This document shows, piece after piece, positions 5,004 through 23,182 of a DNA stretch of 64,000 nt. The stretch spans positions 620,001 to 684,000 of the forward strand of contig NZ_CP154262.1 in assembly GCF_039529835.1 (NCBI RefSeq), in the 5' to 3' direction. Numbering within the stretch: position 1 is the stretch's first letter; every line of letters begins with the position of its first letter. The position numbers were made by a program, and so were the translations under genes. The notes under the pieces were generated by a model. It had not been told where the DNA came from. It did no database searches and worked only from the letters and a program-made list of their open reading frames with translations. This DNA comes from Arthrobacter sp. TMP15. GTDB taxonomy: Bacteria > Actinomycetota > Actinomycetes > Actinomycetales > Micrococcaceae.

Positions 5004-6029
5004 TTAGAAGTCCCAGTCGCCGTCGTCCGTGTCCTGCGATATACCAATGACATACGAGGAACCAGACCCGGAGAAAAAGTCATGGTTTTCATTGGAACCA
5101 GGGGACAGTGCCGCCAAAATCTCCGGGTTAACCTGAGTCTGCTCAGCCGTGAAACGGGCCGGATAACCCAGATTCATCAGGGCCTTGTTGGCGTTGTAAC
5201 GAACAAAAACGGCCACATCCTCCATAAGACCCAACGGTTCATAGAGCTCACCGGAGTACTGAAGCTCCAGCTCATACAGCTCTTCCAGCAGCTCGTAGGT
5301 GAATTTGCGCATTTCCTCCTGCTCGCTCCGGCTGCGCTTTTCAAGCCCACGCTGGTACTTATAACCGGAGTAGTAGCCGTGCACTGCTTTATCTCGAAGA
5401 ATGAGGCGGACCATATCCGCTGTATTAGTCAGCGTGGCGTGCACGGAGAAGTGCAGTGGCAAGTAAAAGCCCGCATAAAGCAGCAGTGAAGACAGCAGGG
5501 TTGAAGAGACCTTGCGTTTAAGCGGATCATTTCCGTAGTAATGTTCCAAAACCTTCTTGGAACGTGTTTGCAGAAGATCGTTTGCCACGGCCCAGCGGTA
5601 TGAATCATCAATCTCGGGCGTGCTGGCGAGAGTGGAAAAGACGCTGGAGTAGGAGCGGGCATGCACCGATTGCATGAACGCGATGTTTGTATAAACCGCT
5701 TCTTCATGTTCGGTCTGGGCGTCCTGAATCTGGCAGACCTCCCCAACAGTTGCCTGCACGGTGTCCAGCATTGTCAACCCGGTGAAGACGCGCATGGTTA
5801 AGGTGCGCTCCTCATTGGTCATTGACTGCCACGCCGGGATGTCATTGGAGAGCGGGACTTTCTCAGGGAGCCAGAAATTTGTGGTGAGCCTGTTCCACAC
5901 TTCGGGGTCCTTTTCATCAACAATCCGGTTCCAGTTGATGGGACGCAGACGGGCTTGAGGATCATGCTGGTAGCCAGGAGGTGTCACTGAGAGCTGGGCA
6001 GTCGCCTGGGTTTTTTCAGAGGGTGTCAT
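5004..6029 (-). CDS. nrdF: Class Ib ribonucleotide reductase small subunit
   Basis: The protein is 341 residues. It carries the radical-bearing metal centre for dNTP synthesis, together with NrdE. Diagnostic segments are RPINWNRI, the helix with DTVQATVGEVCQIQDAQTEHEEAVYTNI, and the LRDKAVHGYYSGYKYQ block. The C-terminus ends in DTDDGDWDF, the NrdE-binding tail. It follows nrdE by 26 bp. The ATG has AAGGAAG about 10 bp upstream. Confidence 0.95.
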   Translation of the reverse strand: MTPSEKTQATAQLSVTPPGYQHDPQARLRPINWNRIVDEKDPEVWNRLTTNFWLPEKVPLSNDIPAWQSMTNEERTLTMRVFTGLTMLDTVQATVGEVCQIQDAQTEHEEAVYTNIAFMQSVHARSYSSVFSTLASTPEIDDSYRWAVANDLLQTRSKKVLEHYYGNDPLKRKVSSTLLSSLLLYAGFYLPLHFSVHATLTNTADMVRLILRDKAVHGYYSGYKYQRGLEKRSRSEQEEMRKFTYELLEELYELELQYSGELYEPLGLMEDVAVFVRYNANKALMNLGYPARFTAEQTQVNPEILAALSPGSNENHDFFSGSGSSYVIGISQDTDDGDWDF

Positions 6030-6055
6030 GAGAGTGCTTCCTTAGAGGGTTGGAG

Positions 6056-8218
6056 TCAGAGGGCGCAGGAGACGCAGTTTTCAATTTCCGTCCCGGCTAA
6101 AGCCAGTTGGCGCAAACGGATGTAATACAGGGTTTTGAGACCTTTTCGCCACGCATGGATCTGTGCCTTGTTGATGTCCCTTGTTGTTGCCGTGTCCTGG
6201 AAGAACAAGGTGCAGCTCAGGCCCTGGTCTACGTGCTGGGTGGCCGCCGCATAGGTGTCGATGATCTTCTCGTAGCCAATTTCGTAGGAGTCTTCAAAGA
6301 ATTCAAGGTTTGAATTATCCATGTGCGGCGCGGGGAAGTAGACACGGCCCAGTTTGCCTTCCTTGCGGATTTCAATTTTCGCGGCGATTGGGTGGATCGA
6401 TGCCGTGGCGTTGTTGATGTAGGAGATGGAGCCGGTGGGTGGCACCGCCTGCAGGTAGGCGTTGTAAATGCCATCCCTCTGGATGGCGGCCTTCAGCGCA
6501 CGCCAGTGCTCCTGAGTAGGAATCTCTATCCGGGCCTCTGCGAAAAGCTGACGCACACGGTGAGTGGAGGGTGCCCAGGCCTGATCGGTGTACTTGTTGA
6601 AGTAGCTGCCATCTGCATACGTGGAGGTGGCGAAGCCCTCAAATGTGACGCCGCGTTGGGCGGCGATCTGATGTGAGGCACGCAGAGCGTGATAGGCAAC
6701 AGTATAGAAATACATGTTGGTGAAATCCACTCCCTCGGCGCTGCCGTAGTGGATGCGCTGGGAGCCGAGGTAGCCGTGCAGGTTCATCTGCCCCAAACCA
6801 ATTGCGTGGCTGGCATCGTTGCCTGCTGCGGCAGAGGGGACAGCATCCAGAACCGATTGGTCAGAGACGCTGGTTAGTCCGCGCACTGCCGTTTCGATCG
6901 TTGCGCCGAAGTTTGGTGAGGCCATTGCTTGAGCTATGTTCAAGGAGCCCAGGTTGCAGGAGATATCTCGCCCCACCTCTGTGTAGCCAATCGCGGCGTC
7001 GTAGCTAGAGGGGGTGTTGACTTGCAGAATTTCGCTACACAGGTTGGACATGTTGATCCATCCGGAGATGGGATTGGCACGGTTGACAGTATCTTCAAAA
7101 AGTACGTAAGGGTAGCCGGATTCAAACTGCAATTCCGCCAGCGTTTTGAAGAAACCGCGGGCACTGATGGTGGTTTTTCGGATGCGGGGGTTGGCTACCA
7201 GTTCTTCATAGCGGGAACCAACGGAGATGTCAGATAAGGGCGTGCCATATTCGCGCTGAACATCGTAGGGACTGAATAGGTGCATGTCGCGATTGTCGCG
7301 AGCCAGCTCAAAAGTGATGTCAGGAATGACCACCCCAAGTGAGAGGGTTTTGATGCGGATCTTCTCATCAGCATTTTCCCGCTTGGTGTCAAGGAAGGCC
7401 ATAATATCGGGGTGGTGGGCATGGAGATAGACAGCTCCTGCTCCCTGCCGGGCTCCAAGCTGGTTGGCGTAGGAGAATGAATCCTCCAAGATCTTCATAA
7501 CCGGAACCACCCCTGAGGCCTGATTCTGAACCTGCTTGATAGGCGCGCCTGACTCGCGCAGGTTCGTCATCAGCAAGGCAACGCCGCCACCGCGTTTGGA
7601 GAGCTGCAGCGCGGAGTTTACGCTGCGACCGATGGATTCAAGGTTGTCCTCCATACGCAAGAGAAAACATGAGACCATTTCACCACGCTGCTTCTTTCCG
7701 GCATTCAGGAACGTGGGGGTTGCGGGCTGGAATCGGCCGGAGATGATCTCCTCAACTAATTTTGTAGCAAGCTTCTCATCCCCTGCGCCTAAGTAGAGTG
7801 CGGTGGCGACCACGCGATCGGCAAAGTTTTCCAAGTAGCTCTTGCCATCGAAGGTTTTTAGTGTGTAAGAGGAGTAGAACTTGAAAGCGCCCAAGAAGGA
7901 AGCGAAGCGGTGATCAGCCTGCTGAGCCTGGGCATAGACCCCCTTGACGAAGGACCAGTCATAAGCGTTGATGAACGCTTCCTCGTAGTAGTCATGCTTA
8001 AACAGGAAAGCAATTTTTTCCTCGAGGCTCTCAAAGTGGGCAGTGTTTGGGATGACGTCCTGGCGGAAGTATTCGCGCAGGGCCTGTTGATCCTTCTCAA
8101 GTTGGATTGAGCCATCCGGTGCGAAAAGGTTCAACTGCGCATTAAGTGCGTGGTGCTCCTTCCGGGTTCCAATGCCTTTGTGCAAGGGTTTTTCGGCTAT
8201 TACAACGGTGGAATTCAT
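6056..8218 (-). CDS. nrdE: Class Ib ribonucleotide reductase large subunit
   Basis: The 720-residue catalytic subunit lacks an N-terminal ATP cone, as expected for class Ib. Visible landmarks are [20 protein letters not shown] around the catalytic cysteine, and [17 protein letters not shown]. The C-terminal CVSCAL pair passes electrons from a redoxin. Its start overlaps the nrdI stop by 4 bp, indicating translational coupling. No nrdH glutaredoxin gene is next to it, so the electron donor must be encoded elsewhere. Confidence 0.96.
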
Positions 8219-8697
8219 AGTTGATCCTTTTCCTTGGTGGCGGCCTCTGCCCAGAACCGGGTGAGGCCCTCATTGACTCGTTCAACGTCATAGTCGGTGC
8301 CCAGCAGTTCGAACCGATACAGCTCAGGGATCTTGCATTTCCCGGCGATCACGGACCCTGCCAAGCAGTAGTCCTCGCCAAAGTTTGTGTTCCCAGCGGT
8401 GATAACCCCTCGCAGGAAACCCCGATTGACCGGGTCATTGAGGAAATTGATGACTTGTTTGGGTACCGCTCCCTCGCGTGCACCACCGCCATAGGTGGGG
8501 ACCACCATGACAAAAGGGCGGGTGAGTTGGATCTGGCCTTCCAGCTTGGGACGCAGCGGTATTCGTACGGAATGACGGTCCAAACGCTTCACAAAGCGCA
8601 GCGTATTTTCAGAGACGCTTGAGAACACCACAAGATCCGAAGATGCTCTGCGACTGGGGGGATTAAAAGCCGCCGACTTGGCTCTGTCCTGGCTCAC
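8215..8697 (-). CDS. nrdI: NrdI flavodoxin-like protein
   Basis: The 160-residue protein provides the oxidant that assembles the dimanganese-tyrosyl cofactor of NrdF. It contains [18 protein letters not shown] near the N-terminus, VPTYGGG, and [13 protein letters not shown]. The start is a GTG preceded by AGGAA at 7 bp. It is the first gene of the operon, and the two NrdR-like boxes lie 37-83 bp upstream. The first 20 residues before the flavodoxin core are a non-conserved extension. Confidence 0.92.
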
Positions 8698-8916: not shown

Positions 8917-9012
8917 GTTCTGGACACGACACGGGGTGCCGCATTGCGGCTGAGAGCTAGACCCGTTGAACCTGATTTCGATAATCCGAGCGAAGGGATG
9001 CCGGTCCAGAAC
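8917..9012 (+). promoter_or_regulatory. TPP riboswitch aptamer (THI box)
   Basis: All conserved elements are present in order: CGGGGTGCC, GCTGAGA, ACCCGTTGAACCTGAT, then TAATCCGAGCGAAGGGATG. The P1 stem is a perfect 9-bp pairing of GTTCTGGAC (8917-8925) with GTCCAGAAC (9004-9012). The aptamer faces the SDR and flavin monooxygenase genes downstream, so these should be repressed when thiamine pyrophosphate is plentiful. Confidence 0.95.
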
Positions 9013-9055
9013 AAAGGCCATAGCGCTCGCAGCAGCGTGGGAATCGTGCTTTTGG

Positions 9056-9082
9056 GCATCCTTTTACTCATATGAAAGGTGC
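9056..9082 (+). promoter_or_regulatory. Putative ribosome-binding-site sequestering hairpin of the TPP riboswitch
   Basis: GCA plus CCTTT (9056-9064, one bulged base) can pair with AAAGG plus TGC (9075-9082). AAAGG is the ribosome binding site of the ATG at 9087. This would be a translational expression platform. The alternative pairing with the aptamer was not worked out. Confidence 0.5.
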
Positions 9083-9086
9083 ACAC

Positions 9087-9851
9087 ATGCTGATCAAAGA
9101 CCAAGTTGTACTCATTACCGGCGCTGGGCGCGGACTCGGCACCGACGTGGCCCGTTCCTTTGCCCGTGAAGGCGCCCGCCTGGTGCTGAACTACCGCAAC
9201 AGTGAAGTCGCCGCGCAGGAACTAGCCCGTGAATTCGGTTCAGAAAAAGCGATTGCGTTACGCGCAGATGTCACCAATGCTGGCGAGGTGAATGCCATGG
9301 TCGCTGCGGCAACCGAACATTTTGCTACACCCATCACCACGGCGATCAACAACGCTTTGCCGGACTTTTCTTTCAACGGCGACGGCCGTTCTAAGGCCGA
9401 AGAGATTTGCTACGAGGAATTTCGGGCACAATTTGCCGGAGTTGTGGGAGGTGCCCTGAATACCATCCAGGCAGTAGTGCCGGGAATGAAGGAAGCTGGG
9501 TTTGGCGCCATCGTTAACGTTGGCACAAACCTGTTCCAAAACCCCGTGGTTCCATACCACGACTACACCGCGGCGAAGGCTGCCCTGCTGGCGTTGACCC
9601 GGACGTTCGCGGCCGATCTAGGACCATCAAATATCCGCGTCAACATGGTTTCAGGTGGGCTGCTGCGCACCACTGACGCCTCCGCAGCCACGCCAGAGCA
9701 GGTTTTTGACTTGATCGCCGGCGGAACGCCGCTGCGTAAAGTCACCACTCCAGCCGAATTTGCCGATGCCGCACTCTTCTTCGCCTCACCGTGGTCCCGA
9801 GCCGTGACGGGGCAAAATCTTGTGGTCGACGGCGGACTGGTCATGAACTAA
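9087..9851 (+). CDS. Short-chain dehydrogenase/reductase under TPP riboswitch control
   Basis: The 254-residue SDR has the NAD(P)-binding TGAGRGLG near residue 10, a DVTNAGEV acidic motif, INNALPD in place of NNAG, and YTAAK for the catalytic Tyr/Lys. At the usual Ser position the sequence reads IVNVGTN, a Thr or non-standard residue. The C-terminal GQNLVVDGGL is typical. An in-frame ATG at 9072 exists, but only 9087 has a ribosome binding site. The gene shares its riboswitch leader with the downstream monooxygenase 16 bp away. The substrate is unknown; riboswitch control implies a thiamine-related role, for example precursor salvage. Confidence 0.85.
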   Translation: MLIKDQVVLITGAGRGLGTDVARSFAREGARLVLNYRNSEVAAQELAREFGSEKAIALRADVTNAGEVNAMVAAATEHFATPITTAINNALPDFSFNGDGRSKAEEICYEEFRAQFAGVVGGALNTIQAVVPGMKEAGFGAIVNVGTNLFQNPVVPYHDYTAAKAALLALTRTFAADLGPSNIRVNMVSGGLLRTTDASAATPEQVFDLIAGGTPLRKVTTPAEFADAALFFASPWSRAVTGQNLVVDGGLVMN

Positions 9852-9867
9852 GGACGGGGGAGTTCTC

Positions 9868-11202
9868 ATGAACAGCACACGAGAATTACATATCAATGCT
9901 TTTCTTTTCGGGGCAGGGCATCACACAATGGGTTGGCGGCACCCGAATTCCAGTGCCGAGCGGGTAGGTGAGATTTCCTATTTCGAGGAACTGGCGCAAC
10001 TGGCCGAAAGTGGCTGCCTTGACGCCATTTTCTTCGCGGACGGGCACGCCATCAACCGGACCTACACCGCGGGAGTGCCGTGGCTTCTGGAGCCCATTAC
10101 GGCTCTGAGCGCCATAGCCAGGGCCACCAAAAACATTGGCTTGGTCACCACCGTTTCCTCAAGCTTTTATACACCCTTCCATGCTGCACGCATGCTTGCC
10201 TCATTGGATCACATCAGCGGTGGGCGAGTGGGGGCAAACATTGTCACCTCCATGTTTGATGCTGAAGCCCAAAATCATGGGTTGGCGGCACTGCCAAACC
10301 ATGCTGACCGCTATGAAAGGGCTGATGAGTTTGTCCAAGTAATCCAGACGTTGTGGGATTCATGGTCGGATGAGGCGCTTCCCGCTGACAGGGAGAGCGG
10401 GACCTTTATTGATGCGGAGCAGATTCAACCGATCAACCATGAGGGCAAATACTTTTCCGTGAAGGGCCCGCTCAACGTTCCGCGTCCTCCGCAGGGCAGG
10501 CCGGTGCTTTTCCAGGCCGGGTCCTCGGAAGTAGGGCGAGCATTCGCGGCTCGATTTGCCGAGGCTATCTATTCTGTTTCTTGGGATAAGGACTCGGCAC
10601 TAGAGTTCGCCACCGATATGCGAGAGCGCCTAGCTGTTGCCGATCGTTCTCAAACCGTGGTTCCAATCCTGCCTGGACTAGTCACCTATGTGGCACCAAC
10701 CCGGGAAGGGGCGCTGGAGAAGAAACGCGCACTTGACGCTTATCTGGATATTCCAGCGGCAATCGCCCAACTGAACGTGTTTACCGGCCAGGATTACCGA
10801 ACCCATGGGCTTGATGATGCGGTGGCTCCGCTGCCGCCAGCGGCGACGTTCACGGGCCCGCAGGGGCGGTACCTGACAGTGCAACGAATTATTGAAACCA
10901 AGGAGCCCACATTGCGGGAACTACTGGGCTTCCTGGCAGCCGGAGGTGGTCATGCCACCATGATTGGCACGCCCACCGAAGTTGCCGATGAAATTCAGGA
11001 GTGGTTTGAATCTGGTGCTTGTGACGGGTTCAACCTGATGTGTCCGGCCTACCCGGACTCCCTGAAGGATTTTGTTGACTTGGTAGTACCGATTTTGCAG
11101 GACCGTGGGATCTTCCGAACCGCATACCCGGGCAGTACTCTGCGAGATAATTTGGGCCTGTCCCGGCCTGAATTGAAATCTTTTGCCGGGCACACTACCT
11201 AG
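9868..11202 (+). CDS. Flavin-dependent monooxygenase, NtaA/SnaA/DszA family
   Basis: This 444-residue luciferase-like monooxygenase has the family length. It starts with LHINAFLFGAGHHTMGWRHP and carries LEPITALSAIA, LDHISGGRVGANIVTS and the HADRYERADEF block. Relatives use FMNH2 supplied by a partner reductase to cleave C-N or C-S bonds in compounds such as nitrilotriacetate or dibenzothiophene sulfone. GGGGGAG precedes the ATG. It is the second gene of the TPP-riboswitch unit, and no flavin reductase is nearby. Inference: it may open or trim a thiazole or pyrimidine compound for thiamine salvage. The substrate cannot be read from sequence. Confidence 0.85.
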   Translation: MNSTRELHINAFLFGAGHHTMGWRHPNSSAERVGEISYFEELAQLAESGCLDAIFFADGHAINRTYTAGVPWLLEPITALSAIARATKNIGLVTTVSSSFYTPFHAARMLASLDHISGGRVGANIVTSMFDAEAQNHGLAALPNHADRYERADEFVQVIQTLWDSWSDEALPADRESGTFIDAEQIQPINHEGKYFSVKGPLNVPRPPQGRPVLFQAGSSEVGRAFAARFAEAIYSVSWDKDSALEFATDMRERLAVADRSQTVVPILPGLVTYVAPTREGALEKKRALDAYLDIPAAIAQLNVFTGQDYRTHGLDDAVAPLPPAATFTGPQGRYLTVQRIIETKEPTLRELLGFLAAGGGHATMIGTPTEVADEIQEWFESGACDGFNLMCPAYPDSLKDFVDLVVPILQDRGIFRTAYPGSTLRDNLGLSRPELKSFAGHTT

Positions 11203-11211
11203 GGCGGTTTA

Positions 11212-11255
11212 GATTGACTCGGCTAGCCGGCTCAACCCGACTAGCCGAGTGAATC
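11212..11255 (+). terminator. Hairpin between convergent genes
   Basis: GATTGACTCGGCTAG pairs with CTAGCCGAGTGAATC (one mismatch) around a 14-nt loop. It lies just past the monooxygenase stop and 33 bp before the end of the opposing gene, so it may serve both. Confidence 0.65.
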
Positions 11256-11287
11256 TCAGGCGCCACGTGGCTAACTATTGGTGCTGG

Positions 11288-15010: not shown

Positions 15011-16513
15011 TTAGGTCTGTTGGGGTGTGAGTGGTTGTTCCCCGGTGATGGGTATTTCTTGGTTGTTGGCGTCGAGGAGTTTGCCGTTGTCCCAGTGGTC
15101 TCCGTGTTGGAGGCAGTGGGCTATTTCGGCGGGGATGAGTCGGTCTGTTCCGGCGGCGAAGACGGAGGGGTTTTCTGGGTTGCCGAGGGTGAAGTGGTTG
15201 AAGAGGAGGTTTAGGAGGATGGCGACTACGGCGGCGGAGCTGATGCCGGAGTGGAAGATGGTGGCGAACCATTCGGGGAATTTGTCGTAGAAGGTGGGTG
15301 CGGCGATGGGGATGATGCCGGCGCCGATGGCGGTGGCGACGATGATCATGTTCATGTTGTTTTTGTAGCTGACGGTGGAGAGTGTGCGGATGCCGCTGGC
15401 TGCGACGGTGCCGAAGAGGACGATTCCTGCTCCGCCGAGGACGGGTAGTGGTACTGCTGCTACGACGCGGCCCATGACGGGTAGGATGCCCAGGATGACG
15501 AGGATGACCCCTCCTGCTGCGACGACGAAGCGGCTTTTGATGCCGGTGACGGCGACGAGGCCGACGTTTTGGGCGAAGGCGCTTTGGGTGAAGGAGCCGA
15601 AGACGGGGGCGATGACGCTGGCGGCCATGTCGGCGCGGAGGCCGTCGCCGAGGCGGCGGGAGTCGACTTTGGTTTCTACGATGTCTGCTACTGCCAGGAT
15701 GTCCGCGGAGGTTTCTACCATGATGACCAGGACCACGATGAACATGGAGATGATCGCGGCGAGGTGGAAGGTGGGCATGCCGAGGTGGAAGGGTGTGGGG
15801 AAGGCGATGAGGGGGCCGGTGGTGACTTTGGAGAAGTTGGCCATTCCTAGGGCGAGGGCGATGAGTGTGCCGATGACGATTGCTAGCAGGATGGAGAGTC
15901 GTGAGATGGTGCTGTTTCCTAGTTTGCTGAGTAGGAGCACGATCACGAGGGTTCCGGCGGCGAGGGCGATGTTGGTTACGTCGCCGTAGTTTTCTGCTTT
16001 TTTGTTTCCGCCCATGGCCCAGTTAGCTGCTACGGGCATGAGGGAGAGGCCGATGACGGTGATCACGGTGCCGGTGACTACGGGTGGGAAGAATTTGATG
16101 ATTTTGGAGAAGATGGGGGAGATGAGTAGGCCTAGTGCTGAGGAGACGATCACGGCGCCGAAGACGCTTTGGATTCCGCCGCCGCCGTTGACGATGGCGA
16201 CCATGGTGGCTACTCCGGCGAATGAGACGCCTTGTACTAGGGGTAGTTGAGAGCCGAAGAAGGGTAGGCCTAGGGTTTGGAGCAGGGTGGCTAGGCCGCC
16301 CATGAAGAGGCATGCTGCGATGAGTAGGCCGATGTCTGCTGGTTTTAGTCCTGCTGCTTGGCCCACGATTAGGGGTACGGCGATGATGCCGCCGTACATG
16401 GTGAGGACGTGTTGGAATCCGTACGCGAAGCTGGCGCCGATTCCTAGTTTTTCATCTTCTGGTCTGGCTGTTTTCGTGGTGGCTATGGTGGTGGTGCGTG
16501 TTTTCTTGGTCAT
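15011..16513 (-). CDS. NCS2-family urate/xanthine permease, copy 1
   Basis: The 500-residue nucleobase:cation symporter-2 protein has multiple membrane helices. Signature segments are GFQHVLTMYGGIIAVPLIVG, a QLPLVQGVSF motif and ETSADILAVADIVETKVDSRRLGDGLRAD. It is the last gene after uraD, hiuH and uox, so urate or xanthine uptake is the likely role. The ATG at 16513 follows AAGGAGGT; the longer ORF upstream is ignored. It differs from copy 2 at two residues in the shared part (L versus I, E versus D), and its last ten residues are unrelated because the duplicated block ends inside the gene. A 13-bp hairpin separates it from uox. Confidence 0.9.
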   Translation of the reverse strand: MTKKTRTTTIATTKTARPEDEKLGIGASFAYGFQHVLTMYGGIIAVPLIVGQAAGLKPADIGLLIAACLFMGGLATLLQTLGLPFFGSQLPLVQGVSFAGVATMVAIVNGGGGIQSVFGAVIVSSALGLLISPIFSKIIKFFPPVVTGTVITVIGLSLMPVAANWAMGGNKKAENYGDVTNIALAAGTLVIVLLLSKLGNSTISRLSILLAIVIGTLIALALGMANFSKVTTGPLIAFPTPFHLGMPTFHLAAIISMFIVVLVIMVETSADILAVADIVETKVDSRRLGDGLRADMAASVIAPVFGSFTQSAFAQNVGLVAVTGIKSRFVVAAGGVILVILGILPVMGRVVAAVPLPVLGGAGIVLFGTVAASGIRTLSTVSYKNNMNMIIVATAIGAGIIPIAAPTFYDKFPEWFATIFHSGISSAAVVAILLNLLFNHFTLGNPENPSVFAAGTDRLIPAEIAHCLQHGDHWDNGKLLDANNQEIPITGEQPLTPQQT

Positions 16514-16581
16514 AGCGGACCTCCTTGTCTGCTTACCTAACATCTTTGACGACAACGCGCTGTGGGGGTTGCCGTGTTGGT

Positions 16582-16609
16582 GAGGCGGGGGGCCGTGGCC
16601 CCCCGCCTC
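16582..16609 (-). terminator. Hairpin between uox and permease gene, copy 1
   Basis: GAGGCGGGGGGCC and its exact complement are separated by 2 nt. It sits in the 182-bp gap between uox and the permease gene. It may reduce read-through into the permease or stabilise the upstream mRNA. Confidence 0.6.
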
Positions 16610-16652
16610 ACTCTTTACTCAGTACAACTCACTCTTTACTCACTCTTTACTC
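16607..16652. repeat. Short tandem repeat, three units (two in copy 2)
   Basis: CTCACTCTTTACTC occurs at 16607, 16628 and 16639. The matching region of the second operon copy has only two units (41825 and 41846). The 11-bp difference is the only length difference between the two large repeats. Confidence 0.9.
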
Positions 16653-16695
16653 AGTACTGCTGGTTGGTGCTGGTTGGTGCTGGGTGGGGTGGTGT

Positions 16696-17607
16696 TTAGC
16701 AGAAGCCTGCGACGCCGTCCCAGATGTTGCCTGCATTGGAGGCGTTTTCGCGTAGGACGGTTCCTTCGATGAGGCCGTAGGGGCGGTCTGCTGCGAAGAA
16801 GACTTCGTTGGGGTTGTCTTGGCCGAAGGGGGTGAGGTCAACGACGAAGTGGTGTTTGTTGGGCATGGAGAATTTGATTTCATCGATTTCTGGGTGGGCG
16901 TTGAGTACTTTTTTGCCCATTTCGAACAGGGTGTTTTGGAGTGCGTGGGAGAAGCCTTCGGTGAAGCCTTCTAGCAGGAGTGCTTTGATGGATTCGTAGG
17001 AGGTGTTGAAGTCGAAGTTTTTATTGATGGCTTCGGGGTTGAAGCGCCAGCGGGCGGCGACGTCGGTGGCGAGGATCCGGTCGCTGGTCTGGGCTAGGGT
17101 GGTGTATTTATCCACGGGGAAGCCTGTGAAGCCGGATTGGGTGGTTTTGAGAACGGTGAGGTCTTTGAGGCCGGCGAGTACGTGGGTGGTGTCGCCGTTT
17201 TTAACGACGACGGAGGTGCGGATTTCTTGGTTGCTTTTCACGAAGGAGTGATCGTGGGCTGTGCCGTTGGCTTGGATGCGGTTCCAGGCGTATTGTTCAG
17301 CTGACCAGCGTCCGCCATTGATCCAGGCGAATTCTTTAGTGAAGTGTTCGCTTAGGCGTAGCAGGAAGGCTTCGGGGGAGCCGATGCCATCGCGGGCGAA
17401 GGAGTAGATGGTGTTCTTTTGTGTGTCGGTGGGGACGACGTGGGCGTTATCGCCATCGATGTGGGCTGCGTTGAAGTCGCCGCGTACTTCTGAGGTGACG
17501 TTGAGGTCTTCGATCTCGTGGCGGTCGGTATCGCGGGTGATTTTTACCACGCGTACTTCGGCTTTGCCGAATTGGTTGGCGCCGAGGATGATGTTGTTCT
17601 CAGTCAT
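16696..17607 (-). CDS. uox: Urate oxidase (uricase), copy 1
   Basis: The 303-residue cofactor-free enzyme oxidises urate to 5-hydroxyisourate. It contains the catalytic VVPTDTQKNTIYSFA region, YTTLAQTSDRILATDVAARW and the C-terminal KHHFVVDLTPFGQDNPNEVF block. The whole closely resembles Arthrobacter globiformis uricase as I remember it. The start lies 3 bp past hiuH, and its ribosome binding site is inside the hiuH stop region. The protein is identical to copy 2. Confidence 0.96.
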   Translation of the reverse strand: MTENNIILGANQFGKAEVRVVKITRDTDRHEIEDLNVTSEVRGDFNAAHIDGDNAHVVPTDTQKNTIYSFARDGIGSPEAFLLRLSEHFTKEFAWINGGRWSAEQYAWNRIQANGTAHDHSFVKSNQEIRTSVVVKNGDTTHVLAGLKDLTVLKTTQSGFTGFPVDKYTTLAQTSDRILATDVAARWRFNPEAINKNFDFNTSYESIKALLLEGFTEGFSHALQNTLFEMGKKVLNAHPEIDEIKFSMPNKHHFVVDLTPFGQDNPNEVFFAADRPYGLIEGTVLRENASNAGNIWDGVAGFC

Positions 17608-17610
17608 GGT

Positions 17611-17952
17611 CTAGTTTCCTCTGTATGTTGAATAGGCGAAGGGGCTTAGCAGCAGGGGTACGTGGTAGTGGTCCTGGCTGTGCTGGAGGGTGAAGGTCAG
17701 GGAGATTTCTGGGAAGAAAGTCTCGGTGTTGATGCTGGCGAAGTAGGCGCCGGTATTGAACCGTAGTTGGTAGGTGCCGGTGGGTAGTTTTTCCGGGCCG
17801 AGGTCTTTCACTCGCCCGTTTGTATCGGTGGTGGCGGTAGCGATTTGGGACCATGTGTGGCCCTCGCGGGTGTGGAGTTCAACGGCGACGGATGTGGCCG
17901 GTGTTCCTGTTGCGGTGTTCAGGATGTGGGTGGTTATGTGGGAAACGCTCAT
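17611..17952 (-). CDS. hiuH: 5-hydroxyisourate hydrolase, copy 1
   Basis: The 113-residue transthyretin-like protein has STHILNT-type N-terminal sequence (ITTHILNTATGTPA), GRVKDL in the middle and the C-terminal signature YSTYRGN, a slight variant of the usual YRGS. It hydrolyses the uricase product to OHCU. Its start overlaps the uraD stop by 4 bp. The protein is identical to copy 2. Confidence 0.95.
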   Translation of the reverse strand: MSVSHITTHILNTATGTPATSVAVELHTREGHTWSQIATATTDTNGRVKDLGPEKLPTGTYQLRFNTGAYFASINTETFFPEISLTFTLQHSQDHYHVPLLLSPFAYSTYRGN

Positions 17953-18446
17953 GCGTTGATCACTCCTTGGAGTCGTAACACTGCGATTTCTCGTAGTTGC
18001 CCAGCAACTATGAGGTTTTCCTCTTCGGGGGTGTTCTTGAGGCGTTGGTGGAGGGTGTTGATGATTTCCTGTGGGGACCGGCCAGCGGCCCGTATCAAAA
18101 AGACTTGGTTGAAACGGGCTTCGTAGGCCCGGTTTCCCTCGGTCAGGGCGGTGGTGATGGCCGGATCGGTGGGATCTACCCCTGCTTGCTCGGAACGAGA
18201 AAGCGTAGCTTCGGTACTGGTGCCGGGGGCGCGTTGACCGATTCGGGGATGATGAGCCATCGCTGAGGCTATTTCTTCGGTAGTGAAGGGATCACTAGCG
18301 TTACCAGCGCAGGAAAGAAGATCATTGATGGTAGCGAAGGGCCGGGCAGTGATGATCTCATCGATCCATCGCTGGATATCGATACAGGGACGCAAAACAG
18401 GTTCGAGTTCTGTTCGCGCGGCGTGATTGAAGTCCTCAAGCAGCAT
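17949..18446 (-). CDS. uraD: OHCU decarboxylase, copy 1
   Basis: The 165-residue enzyme converts OHCU to S-allantoin. It contains the AHHPRIGQ motif with the catalytic His and the SRSEQAGV segment typical of the family. The ATG at 18446 has AGAAGGAA upstream and gives MLLEDFNHA; an ATG 36 bp further upstream lacks a good site. It is the first gene of the urate operon. Two residues differ from copy 2 (D/N and V/M). Confidence 0.94.
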   Translation of the reverse strand: MLLEDFNHAARTELEPVLRPCIDIQRWIDEIITARPFATINDLLSCAGNASDPFTTEEIASAMAHHPRIGQRAPGTSTEATLSRSEQAGVDPTDPAITTALTEGNRAYEARFNQVFLIRAAGRSPQEIINTLHQRLKNTPEEENLIVAGQLREIAVLRLQGVINA

Positions 18447-18510
18447 TGCTTGTATTCCTTCTAGGTCATTGCTGGCATCCACGGTGTCGGCTATACGAAC
18501 AACACAAATA

Positions 18511-18527
18511 GTTTCGTATCGTGGAAC
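18511..18527. promoter_or_regulatory. Candidate IclR-type operator upstream of uraD copy 1
   Basis: GTTTCGTATCGTGGAAC is an imperfect inverted repeat (GTTTC/GGAAC, 7-nt spacer) 65 bp before the uraD start. Similar sequences occur at 29398, 35085, 39107 and 43718. A TTGACA-like hexamer on the minus strand lies at 18571-18576. Confidence 0.6.
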
Positions 18528-18585
18528 TGTTATTTCAGCATATGAATAGTGAACCGCATCACAGCCGAGATGTCAATCACAACAA

Positions 18586-18855
18586 CTGTGTGTAATGCTG
18601 GCGGCAAAGAAGCTCCTGTTTACTGGCGGGTGGCTGCGTACAATCATTGCTGCAACAAGGCGGGCAGGCAGGTGGGCGGGTCCGTGGCCGGTAGGGGCCA
18701 GGGCTGAGGCTGAAAGTCTTCACTGCCCGTGCCGGGCTCGTGCAGCGCAACCGAGGCCCAGGTTTTGAGGGCTGCTTTGAGGGTATGGGTTCAAGGCATG
18801 GCAAAGCAGCACACCGCGGCAGAATGCCGCTGGTGCGCTGCTCGAGGGTGTGGGC
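18586..18855. other. Intergenic region without recognisable gene
   Basis: It lies between the end of the large repeat and bcp. A 75-codon minus-strand ORF (18577-18804) is Pro/Cys-rich with no recognised motif and starts without a clear binding site, so I do not call it a gene. An imperfect hairpin (AGCAGCACACCGCGGCA with its partner, 18805-18842) just past bcp is a likely bcp terminator. Nothing else is seen. Confidence 0.5.
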
Positions 18856-19323
18856 TTAGAGTCCTAGTTCCGTGCGCAAGCGGGCTACGTGACCCTCCGC
18901 GTTGACGTTGTATTCTGCACTGCGCACCGTTCCATCGGCATTGACCACTACCGTGGAGCGCAAGGTGCCGATCATGGTGTTGCCGTTGATTACCTTTTCA
19001 CCCCATGCTCCCCAGGCTTCAGCCACCTCGTGATTGGCGTCAGAGAGGAGGGGGAAGTTCAAGCTGAACTCCTCGGCGAAAGTGGTTAACGCTTCCTGCG
19101 GGTCAGTTGAGATGCCCACAACGTCAACTCCGGCGCCCTGAAGTGCAGTGAGGCTGTCGCGGAAATCGCAAGCCTCGGTGGTGCAGCCGGGGGTGGCGGC
19201 TTTCGGGTAGAAGTAAACGATGACCTGGCGCCCGGCGTAGTCGGTTAGTGAAACGGTTTTACCGTTGGCATTCGGAAGGCTGAAGCCAGGGGCTGTTTGA
19301 GCGGCGCTGAGTTGCTTTGACAT
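18856..19323 (-). CDS. bcp: Bcp-type thioredoxin-dependent peroxiredoxin
   Basis: The 155-residue protein has the peroxiredoxin motif ATPGCTTEACDFRD with Cys47 and Cys52, the atypical 2-Cys pair of Bcp/PrxQ enzymes. It reduces peroxides in the cytoplasm using thioredoxin. WGAWGEKVING and STVVVNADGTV further along fit the family. It is divergent from the SDR-MarR-SDR unit. Urate oxidase makes hydrogen peroxide, so closeness to the urate operon may be meaningful, but this is inference. Confidence 0.93.
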   Translation of the reverse strand: MSKQLSAAQTAPGFSLPNANGKTVSLTDYAGRQVIVYFYPKAATPGCTTEACDFRDSLTALQGAGVDVVGISTDPQEALTTFAEEFSLNFPLLSDANHEVAEAWGAWGEKVINGNTMIGTLRSTVVVNADGTVRSAEYNVNAEGHVARLRTELGL

Positions 19324-19358
19324 TTTTGCTCCAATGTTTTCATTATGCGGAATAATTA

Positions 19359-19531
19359 TTTTGCTGTATGGAACAGCATAATGACACCGGCATGCAACGT
19401 CAACGTCGTGTCCGGCATGCGGGCGCTACCTTAGTGTCTCGCATTGCCGGATCGGAGCGCGTGGCGGCTGGCAATACTGCTATTTAGTGTCGCAACGACA
19501 GTAAAAGTGTTATGCTGTCTGTACGACATAA
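19359..19531. promoter_or_regulatory. Two related operator-like sites between bcp and the SDR unit
   Basis: Site A (19359-19381) read on the minus strand is TTATGCTGTTCCATACAGCA, with a perfect TGCTGT/ACAGCA repeat. Site B (19510-19531) on the + strand is TTATGCTGTCTGTACGACAT. Both begin TTATGCTGT and end in an A-rich run. Site B lies 34 bp before the SDR start. A natural candidate binder is the MarR protein encoded in this unit. Confidence 0.55.
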
Positions 19532-19564
19532 AATTTGCCGGGATACCAACCCCAAGGAGAAATC

Positions 19565-20308
19565 ATGCTCTTCGATCAGCAAACCGCACTCGTCACCGCC
19601 TCAGGAGCCGGAATTGGCCGCGCCATTGCCCAGCGGCTTGCCGCAGAAGGTGCGGCGGTGGTTGTTTCCGATGTCAATGACGCCGCCGGTGGCGAAACCG
19701 TGGCCCTGATCACTGCAGCTGGGGGACGGGCCGCCTACAAGCATGCCGATGTCAGCAAATCCAAAGACATTAGCGCACTGGTAACTTTCGCCGTTGAAAC
19801 CTTTGGTTCCTTGGACTTGGCGGTCAACAACGCGGGCTTGGGCGCCATGCCCAAGGATATCCAAGACGTCACCATCGATGACTGGGACCGCACCATCAAC
19901 GTCACCTTGCGCGGGACCTTCTTGTCCATGCAGGCTGAAGTTGCCCACTTCCGTGCAAACAATGGTGGTGCCATAGTTAATGTGGCTTCAATTGCGGGTA
20001 TCTCAGCAACGCCGAAACTAACTCCCTATGGCGCATCCAAGCATGGCGTTGTCAGCCTCACCCGCAGCGTGGCATTGGAGAACGCAGCGCATGGAATCCG
20101 TGTCAATGCGGTGGCCCCTGGAGCCATTGAAACCGCAGCATTGGCGGCCCTGCCAGCGGATGCCAAGGCCGGCTACGCTGCTGAAGTTCCAATGAACCGG
20201 CTGGGCCGTTCGGAAGAAATTGCCAATGCCGTGGCATGGCTGCTCTCCAAGGAAGCCAGCTTTGTTACCGGTGTCATACTGCCGGTTGACGGTGGCACCA
20301 ATGCCTAA
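19565..20308 (+). CDS. Short-chain dehydrogenase/reductase (first gene of SDR-MarR-SDR unit)
   Basis: The 247-residue classical SDR has TASGAGIGRAIA for NAD(P) binding, NNAGLGAMP, NVASIAGIS with the catalytic Ser, YGASKHG with Tyr/Lys, and VDGGTNA at the end. The ATG at 19565 follows AAGGAG; the ORF extends 10 codons upstream without one. The stop overlaps the MarR start by 8 bp. The substrate is unknown. Confidence 0.9.
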   Translation: MLFDQQTALVTASGAGIGRAIAQRLAAEGAAVVVSDVNDAAGGETVALITAAGGRAAYKHADVSKSKDISALVTFAVETFGSLDLAVNNAGLGAMPKDIQDVTIDDWDRTINVTLRGTFLSMQAEVAHFRANNGGAIVNVASIAGISATPKLTPYGASKHGVVSLTRSVALENAAHGIRVNAVAPGAIETAALAALPADAKAGYAAEVPMNRLGRSEEIANAVAWLLSKEASFVTGVILPVDGGTNA

Positions 20309-20867
20309 GCTCTCCGAAGCTCAAGAGCGCCAAACCGTGGGCGGTGGCGATGGCCAACGAGCCGCGCTGATTAGCTCCCTGACGCGGATCATCAGCGAAT
20401 GGTCGGCACCGGACTTCCTCACAGCGGTGGTCGCGCGGGAAGGAGTGGACCTTGATCCCGGGGCAATCACCATGATCACCATCCTCTCCGATCAGGGCCC
20501 GCAACGGCCATCGGTGCTGGCCAGGCATATGGTGACGGGAGCATCAAACATCTCCAAGATCGTTGCCCGGCTGACGGCGGCAAAATTGTCCGCGCGGATT
20601 GCAGATCCTCGTGACGCACGTGCTCACCTGGTAGCACTCACCGCGGATGGTCAACGTGTTGCAGACACGTTTGTGCGTGCCGGTGACGGGCTTGTGGAAG
20701 AACTATTACACGGCTGGAGCCCTCAAGAACGAGATGACCTACTCGTCTCGTTGGAAAAACTTGAATCTGCCACAGTGAAACTGGCCAAGAGCATTACAGC
20801 AAAAGTCCCCACCGAAGGACGCGATCCTTCACCTACCCCTCAAACACTTCAAGGAGACCCGCAATGA
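20301..20867 (+). CDS. MarR-family regulator
   Basis: The 188-residue protein has a winged-helix region: RPSVLARHMVTGASNISKIVARLTAAKLSARIADPRDARAHLVALT. The ATG at 20301 overlaps the upstream SDR stop, and its own stop overlaps the next SDR start by 4 bp (ATGA), so all three are translationally coupled. A regulator placed between two enzymes of one operon suggests self-regulation through the paired sites at 19359 and 19510. Confidence 0.87.
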   Translation: MPKLSEAQERQTVGGGDGQRAALISSLTRIISEWSAPDFLTAVVAREGVDLDPGAITMITILSDQGPQRPSVLARHMVTGASNISKIVARLTAAKLSARIADPRDARAHLVALTADGQRVADTFVRAGDGLVEELLHGWSPQERDDLLVSLEKLESATVKLAKSITAKVPTEGRDPSPTPQTLQGDPQ

Positions 20868-21694
20868 GTGCTTCATCCAACCCCACAGAGAACTCCAGCA
20901 ACAATCAGCAGCAACGTACCTACGTCATCACCGGTGCCGGCTCAGGCATTGGACTTGCAACAACCAATCTCCTGCGCGAACGTGGCGCCCGCGTAGTGGG
21001 AGTTGACCTCCGCGGTGCCGATGTTGAAGCAGATCTCAGCACAGCGGCCGGACGAAAAGAAGCCGCAGAGTTGGCCCTCACGGCAGCTGACGGGAAAATC
21101 GACGCCGTCATTGCCTGCGCCGGGATCTCCGCACCCATCCCGCTGACAGTAAGCGTCAATTTTTTCGGTGTCACGGAGTTTCTTCAGCACCTGGCACCTG
21201 CCCTGGCAAAAAGCGCAAGCCCGCGTGCCGTCGTCGTCAGTTCCATGGCTTCTTTGCAGCCCAACTCCCCGGAACTGGTGGAAGCACAGCTCGCCGGTGA
21301 TGAAGAAAAAGCGGTGGCTATTGGCGCCACGCTGGCTGCCTCGGGCCCGGAGGCCGGCTACCTGAACTATCCCTCGAGTAAGCGGGCACTGAGCCGCTGG
21401 GTGCGGCGGGAATCCATCACACCCACCTGGGCCGGGGCTGGTATTCCGTTGAACGCGGTAGCACCAGGGACTGTCATCTCGCCCATGACGGAACAGCTCC
21501 TCGCTACTGAAGAAGGCCGGACAATGGTGGACTCCCATGTTCCCATGCCGCTGAACTACCATTCAGAAGCCATTGTCATCTCCAAGCTGCTGGCCTGGCT
21601 GACAAGCGAAGAAAACACCCACACAACAGGACAAACCATCTACACCGATGGCGGAGCAGATGCTTCACTGCGCGGGGACAACATCTGGGACTAG
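20864..21694 (+). CDS. Short-chain dehydrogenase, 3-alpha-hydroxysteroid dehydrogenase-like
   Basis: The 276-residue SDR starts after a 17-residue polar leader with TYVITGAGSGIGLATTNLL. It has GADVEADLS and IDAVIACAGIS, then SSMASLQ and the separated Tyr-x-x-x-Lys motif YPSSK, with a long insertion between them. This layout resembles 3-alpha-HSD/carbonyl reductases. It is the last gene of the unit, followed by a strong terminator. The substrate is not known. Confidence 0.87.
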   Translation: MSASSNPTENSSNNQQQRTYVITGAGSGIGLATTNLLRERGARVVGVDLRGADVEADLSTAAGRKEAAELALTAADGKIDAVIACAGISAPIPLTVSVNFFGVTEFLQHLAPALAKSASPRAVVVSSMASLQPNSPELVEAQLAGDEEKAVAIGATLAASGPEAGYLNYPSSKRALSRWVRRESITPTWAGAGIPLNAVAPGTVISPMTEQLLATEEGRTMVDSHVPMPLNYHSEAIVISKLLAWLTSEENTHTTGQTIYTDGGADASLRGDNIWD

Positions 21695-21730
21695 CTCCCG
21701 GCACGTGCGAGGAAAACAAAATCTAAATAC

Positions 21731-21770
21731 AAACAGGGAGCCGCAGCTCAACGCTGCGGCTCCCTGGTTT
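21731..21770 (+). terminator. Terminator between convergent genes
   Basis: CAGGGAGCCGCAG pairs perfectly with CTGCGGCTCCCTG around a 7-nt loop, flanked by A residues before and TTT after. It can act in both directions, for the SDR unit and for the E2 gene ending at 21794. Confidence 0.85.
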
Positions 21771-21793
21771 ATCTCTGGATCATGGCGAATGTA

Positions 21794-23182
21794 TTACAAG
21801 CCCAGATCGTCCTGGAAAGCGGCCCCCTCAAGACGCATCCGGACCGTTTGAAGGAAGCGGCCCGCATCGGCCCCGTCCACGAGCCTGTGGTCGTAGGTCA
21901 GGCACAGGTACATCATGTGGCGGATAGCCAGAAGATCATCCCCGTCCGGGCCCGTGACCACCACGGCACGTTTAACAATGGCACCAACACCTAAGATTCC
22001 CACCTGCGGGGCGTTGATGATGGGGGTATCAAAGAGTGCACCCACCGAACCAATGTTCGTGATGGAGAACGTTCCACCGCTGAGCTCATCGGCCGTGATG
22101 GAACCATCGCGTGTACGGGCGGCAACATCGGCAATACCAGCTGCCAAACCGGCCAAATTCAACGTTCCAGCGTTGCGAACCACCGGTACCAGCAGACCCT
22201 TAGGCGCATCCACGGCGAAGGCGAGGTGCTCACCATCGTGGTAGGTGATGTTTCCAGCGGCCTCGTCAAAGGAAGCGTTGAGCATGGGATGAACCTTCAG
22301 CGCCTCCGCCACTGCCTGAGCAATGAACGGCAAATACGTCAGATTCACCCCATTGGCAGCAGCGAATGACTCCTTTGCCCGCGCCCGCAATCGCACAATG
22401 GCGCTGACATCCACCTCGTGCACCTGTGTGAGCTGCGTGGAGGTGTCCAGGGATTCGCGCATGCGCTTGGCGATCACAGAACGAATCCGTGGCGCCTTCA
22501 CTACCGTTCCACGCAGATTTGCGGACGCGGGAGCCCCAGCTACTGGTGCATTTTTAGGTACTTGTGTTGGCGCAGGAGGCACGACGGCGGCACTTGGCTC
22601 AGGCGGTGAAGCGGCAGCGGCAGCGGCTGTAACGTCACTGCGACGAATGCGAGAACCAACGCCGGTACCGCTCACCGTGGCAAGGTCAACTCCGTGCTGG
22701 CGTGCCAGCTTGCGCACCAGCGGAGTGACATAGGTGGCTGATCCGGCCAACGCCGGGGGAGCCTGGGTTTCCGCAGGCGGCGTCAGGGAGGCCGAGGCCG
22801 TCCGCGGCCGATTGGCCGGAAAGCCGCCGAGGGAATCCCGGTCCGCCGGGGGCCCCGCCGCCGGGGTTGCAACTGGCGCAGCCGCCGGGGTTGCAACTGG
22901 CTCAGCCGCCGGTGCTGTCCCGGAGTCGGTCGAAGGGGTTGAATCCGCGGAGCCGATGATGGCAAGGACGGATCCGACTTCGGCAACCTCGTCCTCGGCC
23001 ACCACGATGCTCTGCAGGATTCCTTCGAACGGTGAAGGAATTTCGGTATCCACTTTGTCGGTGGAGACTTCCACGAGCGGGTCATCAATGCTGACGGTGT
23101 CGCCCACGACTTTAAGCCAACGGGTAACAGTTCCTTCGGTGACGCTTTCGCCCAGAGCGGGCAGCAGCACTGACTCAGTCAT
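21794..23182 (-). CDS. 2-oxo acid dehydrogenase E2 (dihydrolipoamide acyltransferase)
   Basis: The 462-residue protein has one lipoyl domain with the modified Lys43 in VSTDKVDTE. An Ala/Pro-rich linker follows, then a peripheral-subunit-binding domain ([17 protein letters not shown]...GSRIRRSDV) and the catalytic domain with [17 protein letters not shown] (His/Asp acyltransferase motif). It could serve pyruvate, 2-oxoglutarate or branched-chain complexes. Its start overlaps the allB stop by 8 bp, so it is the last gene of the gcl-glycerate kinase-allB unit, an unusual place. With aceE only 13 kb away, supply of pyruvate dehydrogenase is a reasonable guess. Confidence 0.92.

What the first reader, a model, noticed from the sequence alone, without database searches (positions are those of the whole stretch)
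8917..11202. TPP riboswitch controlling an SDR and an NtaA-family flavin monooxygenase
A complete TPP aptamer with a 9-bp P1 stem and a plausible ribosome-site hairpin precedes two enzymes that are not standard thiamine biosynthesis genes. NtaA/DszA-like enzymes cleave C-N or C-S bonds, so a thiamine, thiazole or pyrimidine salvage step that works when TPP is low is a testable idea. This could be an undescribed thiamine-linked pathway.
Basis: partly seen in the sequence, partly recalled or inferred. Interest (0 to 1): 0.78.

Follow-up and report, generated by a model that had tools for sequence, protein, structure and literature searches.

The report
Vitamin-B1-switched two-enzyme pyrimidine salvage module
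A vitamin-B1-sensing RNA switch sits in front of two enzymes of unknown job, and the same trio recurs in many soil and marine bacteria, where it most likely recovers the pyrimidine half of vitamin B1 when the vitamin runs short.

Summary
A TPP riboswitch (Rfam RF00059, 65.9 bits, 8922-9015) precedes an SDR (likely 9087-9851) and an NtaA-family flavin monooxygenase (LLM, 9868-11202). It is no local accident. In 197 genomes of the window's family, 62 carry the SDR at 64 places; 62 of 64 have a TPP riboswitch before the gene or its operon, and 59 of 64 have the LLM (4 in pieces, 1 cut by a contig end) directly behind. The trio also occurs in Rhodococcus and in gamma- and betaproteobacteria, some with thiM-thiE-thiD, YkoED-like or sodium-symporter genes nearby. 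Phyletic logic points to the pyrimidine (HMP) half: all 62 SDR genomes have a thiazole source (ThiG or ThiM), against 109 of 135 others, while 42 of 62 lack the HMP synthase ThiC; the ThiC contrast alone is not significant. In the window's clade the leader has a conserved sequester/anti-sequester pairing. Best reading: an HMP salvage module in which the LLM oxidatively releases a pyrimidine aldehyde that the SDR reduces to HMP. Module and thiamine link are well supported; substrates and reactions are inferred. No description turned up in the searchable papers; I recall, unverified, a 2002 'oarX' report of a TPP-regulated SDR.

The parts
8922..9015 (+). TPP riboswitch aptamer (THI element)
   Evidence: Rfam RF00059, 65.9 bits, E 1e-10, model positions 1-105
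8917..9012 (+). outer stem: 8917-8925 paired with 9004-9012 (9 bp)
   Evidence: minimum-energy fold
8996..9002 (+). switching strand GGATGCC, part of the 3' side of the aptamer, exact complement of 9055-9061
   Evidence: identical in the window and 7 relatives aligned with it
9055..9083 (+). Shine-Dalgarno hairpin: GGCATCC (9055-9061) can pair with 8996-9002 (site free) or, with the adjoining T run, with AAAGGTGC (9075-9082; site hidden)
   Evidence: fold, alignment and constrained energies; no intrinsic terminator found
9087..9851 (+). SDR oxidoreductase, NF006393/PRK08642 family (ORF open from ATG 9072; likely start 9087)
9868..11202 (+). flavin-dependent LLM monooxygenase, NtaA/DmoA family (TIGR03860)
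11203..11264 (.). inverted repeat between the convergent LLM and alcohol-dehydrogenase-like genes, possibly the end of the two-gene unit
   Evidence: 28-nt arms, 82% complementary; no T-run terminator matched

Best explanation
This is a TPP-repressed salvage module for the pyrimidine half of thiamine. When TPP is scarce the aptamer's 3' strand pairs with GGCATCC and frees the ribosome site; when TPP binds, that strand is held in the aptamer and GGCATCC hides the ribosome site, so the genes are off. The LLM uses reduced flavin and oxygen to oxidise the methylene carbon of a pyrimidine-CH2-N or pyrimidine-CH2-S compound (thiamine, a thiamine breakdown product, or a thiaminase exchange product), releasing 4-amino-2-methyl-5-formylpyrimidine. 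The SDR reduces that aldehyde to HMP, which ThiD and ThiE join to thiazole phosphate. Shown by sequence: the riboswitch, both enzyme families, their conserved linkage to TPP riboswitches and in part to thiamine genes, and the dependence on a thiazole source. Inferred: direction of control, substrate, both reactions. Separate confidences: thiamine salvage module 0.85; HMP half rather than thiazole half 0.7; LLM-to-aldehyde, SDR-to-HMP scheme 0.45.
For: Riboswitch. Family: TPP riboswitch at 62 of 64 SDR places (60 directly in front, 52 by motif and 8 by Rfam only; 2 at the head of the operon) and the LLM directly behind 59 of 64; Rfam on the first 20 LLM loci: 19 of 20. All 54 family genomes with a whole LLM orthologue (E at most 1e-146) are among the 62 SDR genomes. 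Named genomes, partly the same species as the family set: 57 of 80 loci are SDR-LLM pairs, 55 of 57 with TPP in front. Operons: TPP-SDR-LLM-thiD-MFS-thiM-thiE (L046), TPP-thiM-thiE-thiD-SDR-LLM (L091, L092), separate TPP-LLM and TPP-SDR-thiM-thiE-thiD units in one genome (L052). A second TPP riboswitch on the other strand in 20 of 22 proteobacterial pairs; the symporter behind it is PF00474 in 5 of 5 tested loci, directly divergent in three (L152, L169, L180), one gene away in L177 and downstream of the pair in L203. The SSF symporter ThiV is the likely HMP transporter of SAR11 (PMC11452348, passages). Phyletic: ThiG or ThiM in 62 of 62 SDR genomes versus 109 of 135 others (Fisher 4.7e-5; within-genus shuffle P 0.0004; without five genomes under 90% complete 107 of 130, 7.9e-5). 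ThiC missing in 42 of 62. The window's genome has ThiE, ThiS, a ThiO-like oxidase, ThiG, a ThiD-TenA fusion and a YkoE/YkoD-like pair, but no ThiC or ThiM match. Chemistry: nearest solved structures are CmoJ/YtnJ (Z 45.7, 426 residues, 3.9 A), NtaA-like 3sdo, BdsA and riboflavin lyase RcaE (Z 43.6). That these break C-S or C-N bonds beside an oxidised carbon is recalled knowledge.
Against: No enzyme was assayed and no structure holds a thiamine-like ligand. ThiC is present in 20 of 62 SDR genomes (18 whole), and the ThiC contrast is not significant within genera (P 0.10) nor in the R. ruber genus (4 of 12 SDR genomes versus 4 of 6 others; Fisher 0.32). In the window's genus ThiC is absent from 9 of 9 SDR genomes, but of the two without the SDR only one has a whole ThiC and the other a short fragment. 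Four family genomes (G079, G144, G171, G182) and four named loci (L161, L165, L184, L187) have a TPP-linked SDR with no intact LLM, so the two steps are separable. Nineteen of 80 named SDR loci (Xanthomonadales and others) show neither TPP nor LLM, so the SDR may do something else there. The exact sequester/anti-sequester pairing is clear only in the window's clade: over 87 leaders the mean longest complement is 5.26 against 4.63 expected, and 11 are individually unusual. Absence of thiamine genes from draft genomes can be incompleteness.
Confidence: 0.55

Rival explanations
1. Thiazole-half salvage: LLM and SDR turn a damaged or oxidised thiazole into hydroxyethylthiazole for ThiM.
For: ThiM is encoded in the same operon or next door in seven family genomes (G001, G021, G035, G079, G110, G144, G171), and ThiM is somewhat more frequent with the SDR (32 of 62 versus 47 of 135; within-genus P 0.013).
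Against: 30 of 62 SDR genomes have no whole ThiM, including all 9 in the window's genus, so free thiazole alcohol could not be phosphorylated by ThiM there; 54 of 62 make thiazole with ThiG.
Confidence: 0.12
2. A ThiC-independent, oxygen-dependent new synthesis of HMP from another metabolite, replacing ThiC.
For: 42 of 62 SDR genomes lack ThiC while all have a thiazole source; in the window's genus no genome has both the SDR and ThiC (11 genomes).
Against: 20 of 62 in the family have both. Rhodococcus ruber ZM07 is a thiamine auxotroph (PMC10269752, passages), and the R. ruber genome here has the pair and no ThiC match; whether ZM07 itself has the pair was not checked. Two oxidoreductases are few for making a new ring.
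Confidence: 0.06
3. Thiamine antimetabolite repair: the pair detoxifies pyrimidine or thiamine analogues such as bacimethrin.
For: LLM enzymes attack diverse small molecules (recalled); OFF-control by TPP would also fit analogue stress. No direct evidence here.
Against: Operon sharing with thiD, thiM and thiE in some genomes and the dependence on a thiazole source fit supply better than defence.
Confidence: 0.09
4. The enzymes serve unrelated redox metabolism and the riboswitch is incidental.
For: Both are members of very broad families; the window's neighbours that were tested (nrdI, nrdE, nrdF, an alcohol-dehydrogenase-like gene, a MarR regulator) are not thiamine genes.
Against: TPP linkage at 62 of 64 family places and 55 of 57 named pairs, across two phyla.
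Confidence: 0.05

Closest known systems
[quoted passage not shown]
   Same: TPP-controlled recovery of HMP from thiamine breakdown products (PMC5627462, passages)
   Different: TenA is a hydrolase of another family; here a flavin monooxygenase and an SDR would do it oxidatively. The window's genome has a ThiD-TenA fusion as well.
CmoJ/YtnJ of Bacillus subtilis (6ASK)
   Same: nearest solved sequence and structure to the LLM (about 40% identity, Z 45.7; tied within 1 with 3sdo, YtnJ and BdsA)
   Different: no TPP link known to me; the TPP-linked LLMs share GHH and GGGH[AC]T motifs where CmoJ reads GVGGTT and lacks GGGH
Riboflavin lyase RcaE (5W4Y)
   Same: same family; splits a vitamin at a carbon attached to a ring nitrogen (reaction recalled)
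   Different: 30-33% identity; substrate riboflavin, not thiamine
Thiaminase I operons with thiM, thiD, thiE (Paenibacillus, PMC5627462, passages)
   Same: putative TPP riboswitch over a thiamine-cleaving enzyme with thiM, thiD and thiE
   Different: thiaminase I is a transferase (recalled), not an oxidoreductase
SAR11 ThiV HMP symporter (PMC11452348, passages)
   Same: TPP-linked SSF symporter, as found near the SDR-LLM pair in proteobacteria
   Different: only membership in PF00474 was shown for these symporters, not orthology to ThiV
'oarX' of Rodionov et al. 2002 (recalled; paper not held)
   Same: a 3-oxoacyl-ACP-reductase-like gene under THI elements, as I remember it
   Different: could not be checked; I recall no LLM partner and no function

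Membership tests
TPP riboswitch (RF00059) | covariance-model score at or above gathering cut-off | tested here: met
   65.9 versus 54.3 bits, full length
TPP riboswitch (RF00059) | conserved core bases and helices | tested here: met
   alignment to the family consensus, with four non-standard pairs marked, and to 19 other TPP hits
TPP riboswitch (RF00059) | ligand-dependent expression platform | tested here: inconclusive
   mutually exclusive pairings conserved in 8 of 8 aligned leaders (one hairpin pair lost in L145 and one in L011), not general across 87 leaders; no binding data
NtaA/DmoA FMN-dependent monooxygenases (TIGR03860) | curated model score | tested here: met
   512.6 versus 279.7 bits
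NtaA/DmoA FMN-dependent monooxygenases (TIGR03860) | family fold | tested here: met
   predicted model mean pLDDT 86.6; nearest are CmoJ, NtaA-like, BdsA, RcaE
NtaA/DmoA FMN-dependent monooxygenases (TIGR03860) | use of reduced flavin from a separate reductase | not testable with these tools
   needs an assay; no search for a partner reductase gene was made
PRK08642 SDR (NF006393) | curated equivalog score | tested here: met
   418.3 versus 292 bits; the family's product name, 3-oxoacyl-ACP reductase, is not evidence of that activity
ThiC-replacing HMP supply | absence of ThiC wherever the module occurs | tested here: not met
   ThiC matched in 20 of 62 SDR genomes, 18 of them whole
HMP salvage module | thiazole phosphate obtainable in every genome that has it | tested here: met
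   whole ThiG or ThiM in 62 of 62; ThiG in 12 of 12 SDR genomes of the R. ruber genus
HMP salvage module | enzymes yield HMP from a pyrimidine compound | not testable with these tools
   needs enzymology

The most novel reading that the evidence does not exclude
The LLM is an oxygen- and flavin-dependent 'oxidative thiaminase': it cleaves thiamine or pyrimidine-CH2-X conjugates at the bridging methylene, and the SDR reduces the resulting aldehyde to HMP. That would be a third enzymatic way, beside thiaminases I and II, to take the vitamin apart for re-use, spread over Actinomycetota and Pseudomonadota and switched by TPP.
Probability: 0.3. Interest if true: 0.85.

Novelty: new variant of a known kind. 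Interest (0 to 1): 0.62.

Why it matters
HMP auxotrophy is described as the most common form of thiamine auxotrophy, affecting many marine microbes (PMC11452348, passages), and which environmental compounds feed it is not settled. A conserved, TPP-linked oxidative pair, often in ThiC-less relatives of Arthrobacter, Rhodococcus and Marinobacter, gives a concrete enzyme pair and a short list of substrates to test, and could change how thiamine auxotrophy and cross-feeding are predicted from genomes.

Tried and rejected
Terminator control of the riboswitch: no terminator-like site between aptamer and gene. A universal anti-sequester pairing: tested on 87 leaders found by motif, clear only in the window's clade. 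A strict ThiC complementarity: not supported family-wide (within-genus P 0.10). Thiamine pyrophosphokinase as an explanation: Pfam TPK_catalytic in 0 of 197 family genomes, but 25 SDR-free genomes without whole ThiC, ThiG or ThiM must get TPP somehow, so another kinase probably exists and the absence proves little. The distant SDRs of another class (f18; 6 genomes) also lie behind TPP riboswitches but branch far away (4 placed) and were left out of the argument. 'Sporosarcina' L149 was not taken as a Bacillota case: its neighbours look actinobacterial and its SDR groups with Arthrobacter; it is still one of the 57 pairs. RNA model R1 had only 10 base pairs and was not used. Counting choices: whole ThiG means E below 1e-80; 63 genomes had only weak ThiG matches (E 1e-4 to 1e-8, over the Pfam cut-off, tally 196 of 197) and were counted as lacking it, because the weak matches that were listed are partial; ThiM means E below 1e-50 (79 genomes; the tool's tallies are 93 at E 0.001 and 80 over cut-off); ThiC fragments (G048, G083, G096) were counted as present. 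Literature: searches found no paper; 42 (25 of 46 papers listed), (25 of 71; 10 of 96; 15 of 213) listed none about this pair. Passages were read of PMC3766115, PMC12452182, PMC5627462, PMC10269752, PMC7758286 and PMC11452348; the supplementary gene lists of PMC3766115 could not be opened and might name the SDR.
Full report
Observation. The window holds one Rfam match above its gathering score, a full-length TPP riboswitch at 8922-9015 (+), 65.9 bits against a cut-off of 54.3. Two genes follow: an SDR, open from 9072 and most likely starting at 9087, and a flavin-dependent LLM monooxygenase at 9868-11202. The SDR scores 418.3 bits with NF006393 (PRK08642) and the LLM 512.6 with TIGR03860. A 28-nt inverted repeat follows the LLM and faces a convergent alcohol-dehydrogenase-like gene, so the unit is probably just these two genes. 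The neighbours that were tested are not thiamine genes: nrdI, nrdE and nrdF on one side, the alcohol-dehydrogenase-like gene and a MarR regulator on the other.

The switch. In the window and seven near relatives the leader has two conserved elements separated by a variable linker: the 3' side of the aptamer (GGATGCC, 8996-9002) and GGCATCC (9055-9061), its exact complement, followed by the Shine-Dalgarno hairpin. The hairpin form is the minimum-energy fold (-59.5 kcal/mol; the anti-sequester form -54.7). Since GGATGCC belongs to the closing part of the aptamer, the two pairings exclude each other, which predicts OFF control of translation by TPP. No terminator-like site was found. Over 87 distinct leaders from all lineages the effect is weak (mean longest complement 5.26 against 4.63 in shuffles; 11 with p at most 0.05), so other lineages may use other platforms.

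Conservation in the family. Of 197 genomes of the window's family, 62 carry the SDR at E 1e-55 or better, at 64 places. A TPP riboswitch lies directly in front of 60 of these (52 by motif, 8 by Rfam only) and at the head of a thiM-thiE-thiD-SDR-LLM operon in 2; the two copies without one are both in genome G185, one of them at a contig edge. The LLM follows directly at 59 of 64 places: 54 whole, 4 in two pieces, 1 cut by a contig end. G079, G144 and G171 have none there, G182 has a fragment, and in G001 the LLM is a separate TPP-headed unit. All 54 genomes with a whole LLM orthologue (E at most 1e-146) are SDR genomes. Three more distant LLM loci (43-46% identity; L050, L051, L053) had no TPP motif.

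Conservation beyond the family. Fifty-seven are SDR-LLM pairs, 22 of them proteobacterial, and 55 of 57 have the riboswitch directly in front (motif, Rfam). The exceptions are L176, with only a TPP riboswitch on the other strand, and L214, at a contig edge. They include Arthrobacter, Paeniglutamicibacter, Kocuria, Rhodococcus, Cryobacterium, Nocardiopsis, Marinobacter, Halomonas, Oceanimonas, Pseudomonas saliphila, Alcaligenes and Pusillimonas. Of the 23 loci without the LLM (one, L200, ends soon after the SDR), 4 have the riboswitch (L161, L165, L184, L187) and 19 do not; of those 19, Rfam was run on 14 with no TPP hit and the motif search alone on 5. In a sample of 296 genomes across the phylum the SDR model passed in 9 at E 1e-70: the window's own, two of the same class, and six of another class. 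Of the two, one has the riboswitch and one shows none above cut-off in its 1500-base flank; four of the six were placed on the tree and branch far away.

Linked genes. L046 is TPP-SDR-LLM-thiD-MFS-thiM-thiE. L043 and L120 have ykoE- and ykoD-like genes behind their own TPP riboswitch, divergent from TPP-SDR-LLM. Twenty of the 22 proteobacterial pairs have a second TPP riboswitch on the other strand nearby. In five loci the gene behind it was tested and is a PF00474 sodium:solute symporter: directly divergent in L152, L169 and L180, one gene away in L177, downstream of the pair in L203. In SAR11 the TPP-linked SSF symporter ThiV is the likely HMP transporter (PMC11452348, passages); orthology to it was not tested.

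Which half of thiamine. The window's genome has no ThiC match and no ThiM match, but has ThiE (TIGR00693, 189.8 bits), ThiS, a ThiO-like oxidase, ThiG, a ThiD-TenA fusion and a YkoD-like ATPase with a YkoE-like permease: it can make thiazole but must get HMP from elsewhere. Across the 197 genomes, every one of the 62 SDR genomes has a whole ThiG or ThiM, against 109 of 135 without the SDR (Fisher 4.7e-5; shuffling within the 16 genera that have the SDR, P 0.0004). Dropping five SDR-free genomes under 90% complete leaves 107 of 130 (7.9e-5). How weak ThiG, ThiM and ThiC matches were treated is told under Tried and rejected. Forty-two of 62 lack ThiC. The ThiC contrast itself is weak: 20 of 62 against 61 of 135, P 0.10 within genera. 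In the window's own genus it is 0 of 9 against 2 of 2, one of those two being a short fragment. In the 18 genomes of the R. ruber genus, ThiC is in 4 of 12 with the SDR and 4 of 6 without (Fisher 0.32), and ThiG in 18 of 18. Among 41 named genomes with the pair that were tested, 19 have no ThiC match. A product found only where thiazole can be supplied, often where HMP cannot be made, is most simply the HMP half. A thiazole product is hard to square with 30 of 62 genomes lacking ThiM.

Mechanism. The LLM model (pLDDT 86.6) is closest to CmoJ/YtnJ, NtaA-like 3sdo, BdsA and riboflavin lyase RcaE. From general knowledge of these enzymes, they oxidise a carbon beside N or S, and the bond falls apart to a carbonyl. 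Applied to pyrimidine-CH2-X this gives the 5-formylpyrimidine; an SDR would reduce it to HMP. That order fits the SDR occurring alone (aldehyde from elsewhere), while no family genome has a whole LLM orthologue without the SDR. The 15 TPP-linked LLMs aligned are 54-84% identical to the window's (mean column identity 71%) and share motifs absent from CmoJ. Substrate and reactions are inference.

Novelty. Six searches returned no paper, and the capped listings of four more showed none on this pair (see Tried and rejected). I recall, without being able to check, that a 2002 comparative study named a TPP-regulated 3-oxoacyl-ACP-reductase-like gene 'oarX' of unknown function; if so, the regulated SDR is old news, while the LLM partner, the link to thiazole supply and the oxidative salvage proposal would be new.

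Noticed in passing
window 5004-8697: nrdI, nrdE and nrdF of a class Ib ribonucleotide reductase run divergently from the riboswitch unit.
   Followed up: partly
window 15011-24611: A purine breakdown cluster: xanthine/uracil-type permease, urate oxidase, OHCU decarboxylase and allantoinase.
   Followed up: partly
L126:4973-5626 (own genome): A pterin-4a-carbinolamine dehydratase fused to a glyoxalase-like domain directly follows the thiO-like gene, thiS and thiG.
   Followed up: no
L004:1501-1627: Between thiE and the thiO-like gene the own genome has a TPP match of 43 bits, below the Rfam cut-off.
   Followed up: no
L135-L140: In another class a distant SDR, just over the NF006393 cut-off, also follows TPP riboswitches, with thiM nearby in L138 and L143: perhaps an independent recruitment.
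   Followed up: partly
L205 and other Xanthomonadales loci: The SDR family occurs without TPP riboswitch or LLM, in L205 next to dapB and carA; what it does there is unknown.
   Followed up: no
L149: The contig labelled Sporosarcina beigongshangi carries an actinobacterial-looking neighbourhood and may be contamination.
   Followed up: no
L087, L088, L091, L092, L215: The LLM gene aligns in two pieces behind the SDR, perhaps decaying.
   Followed up: no
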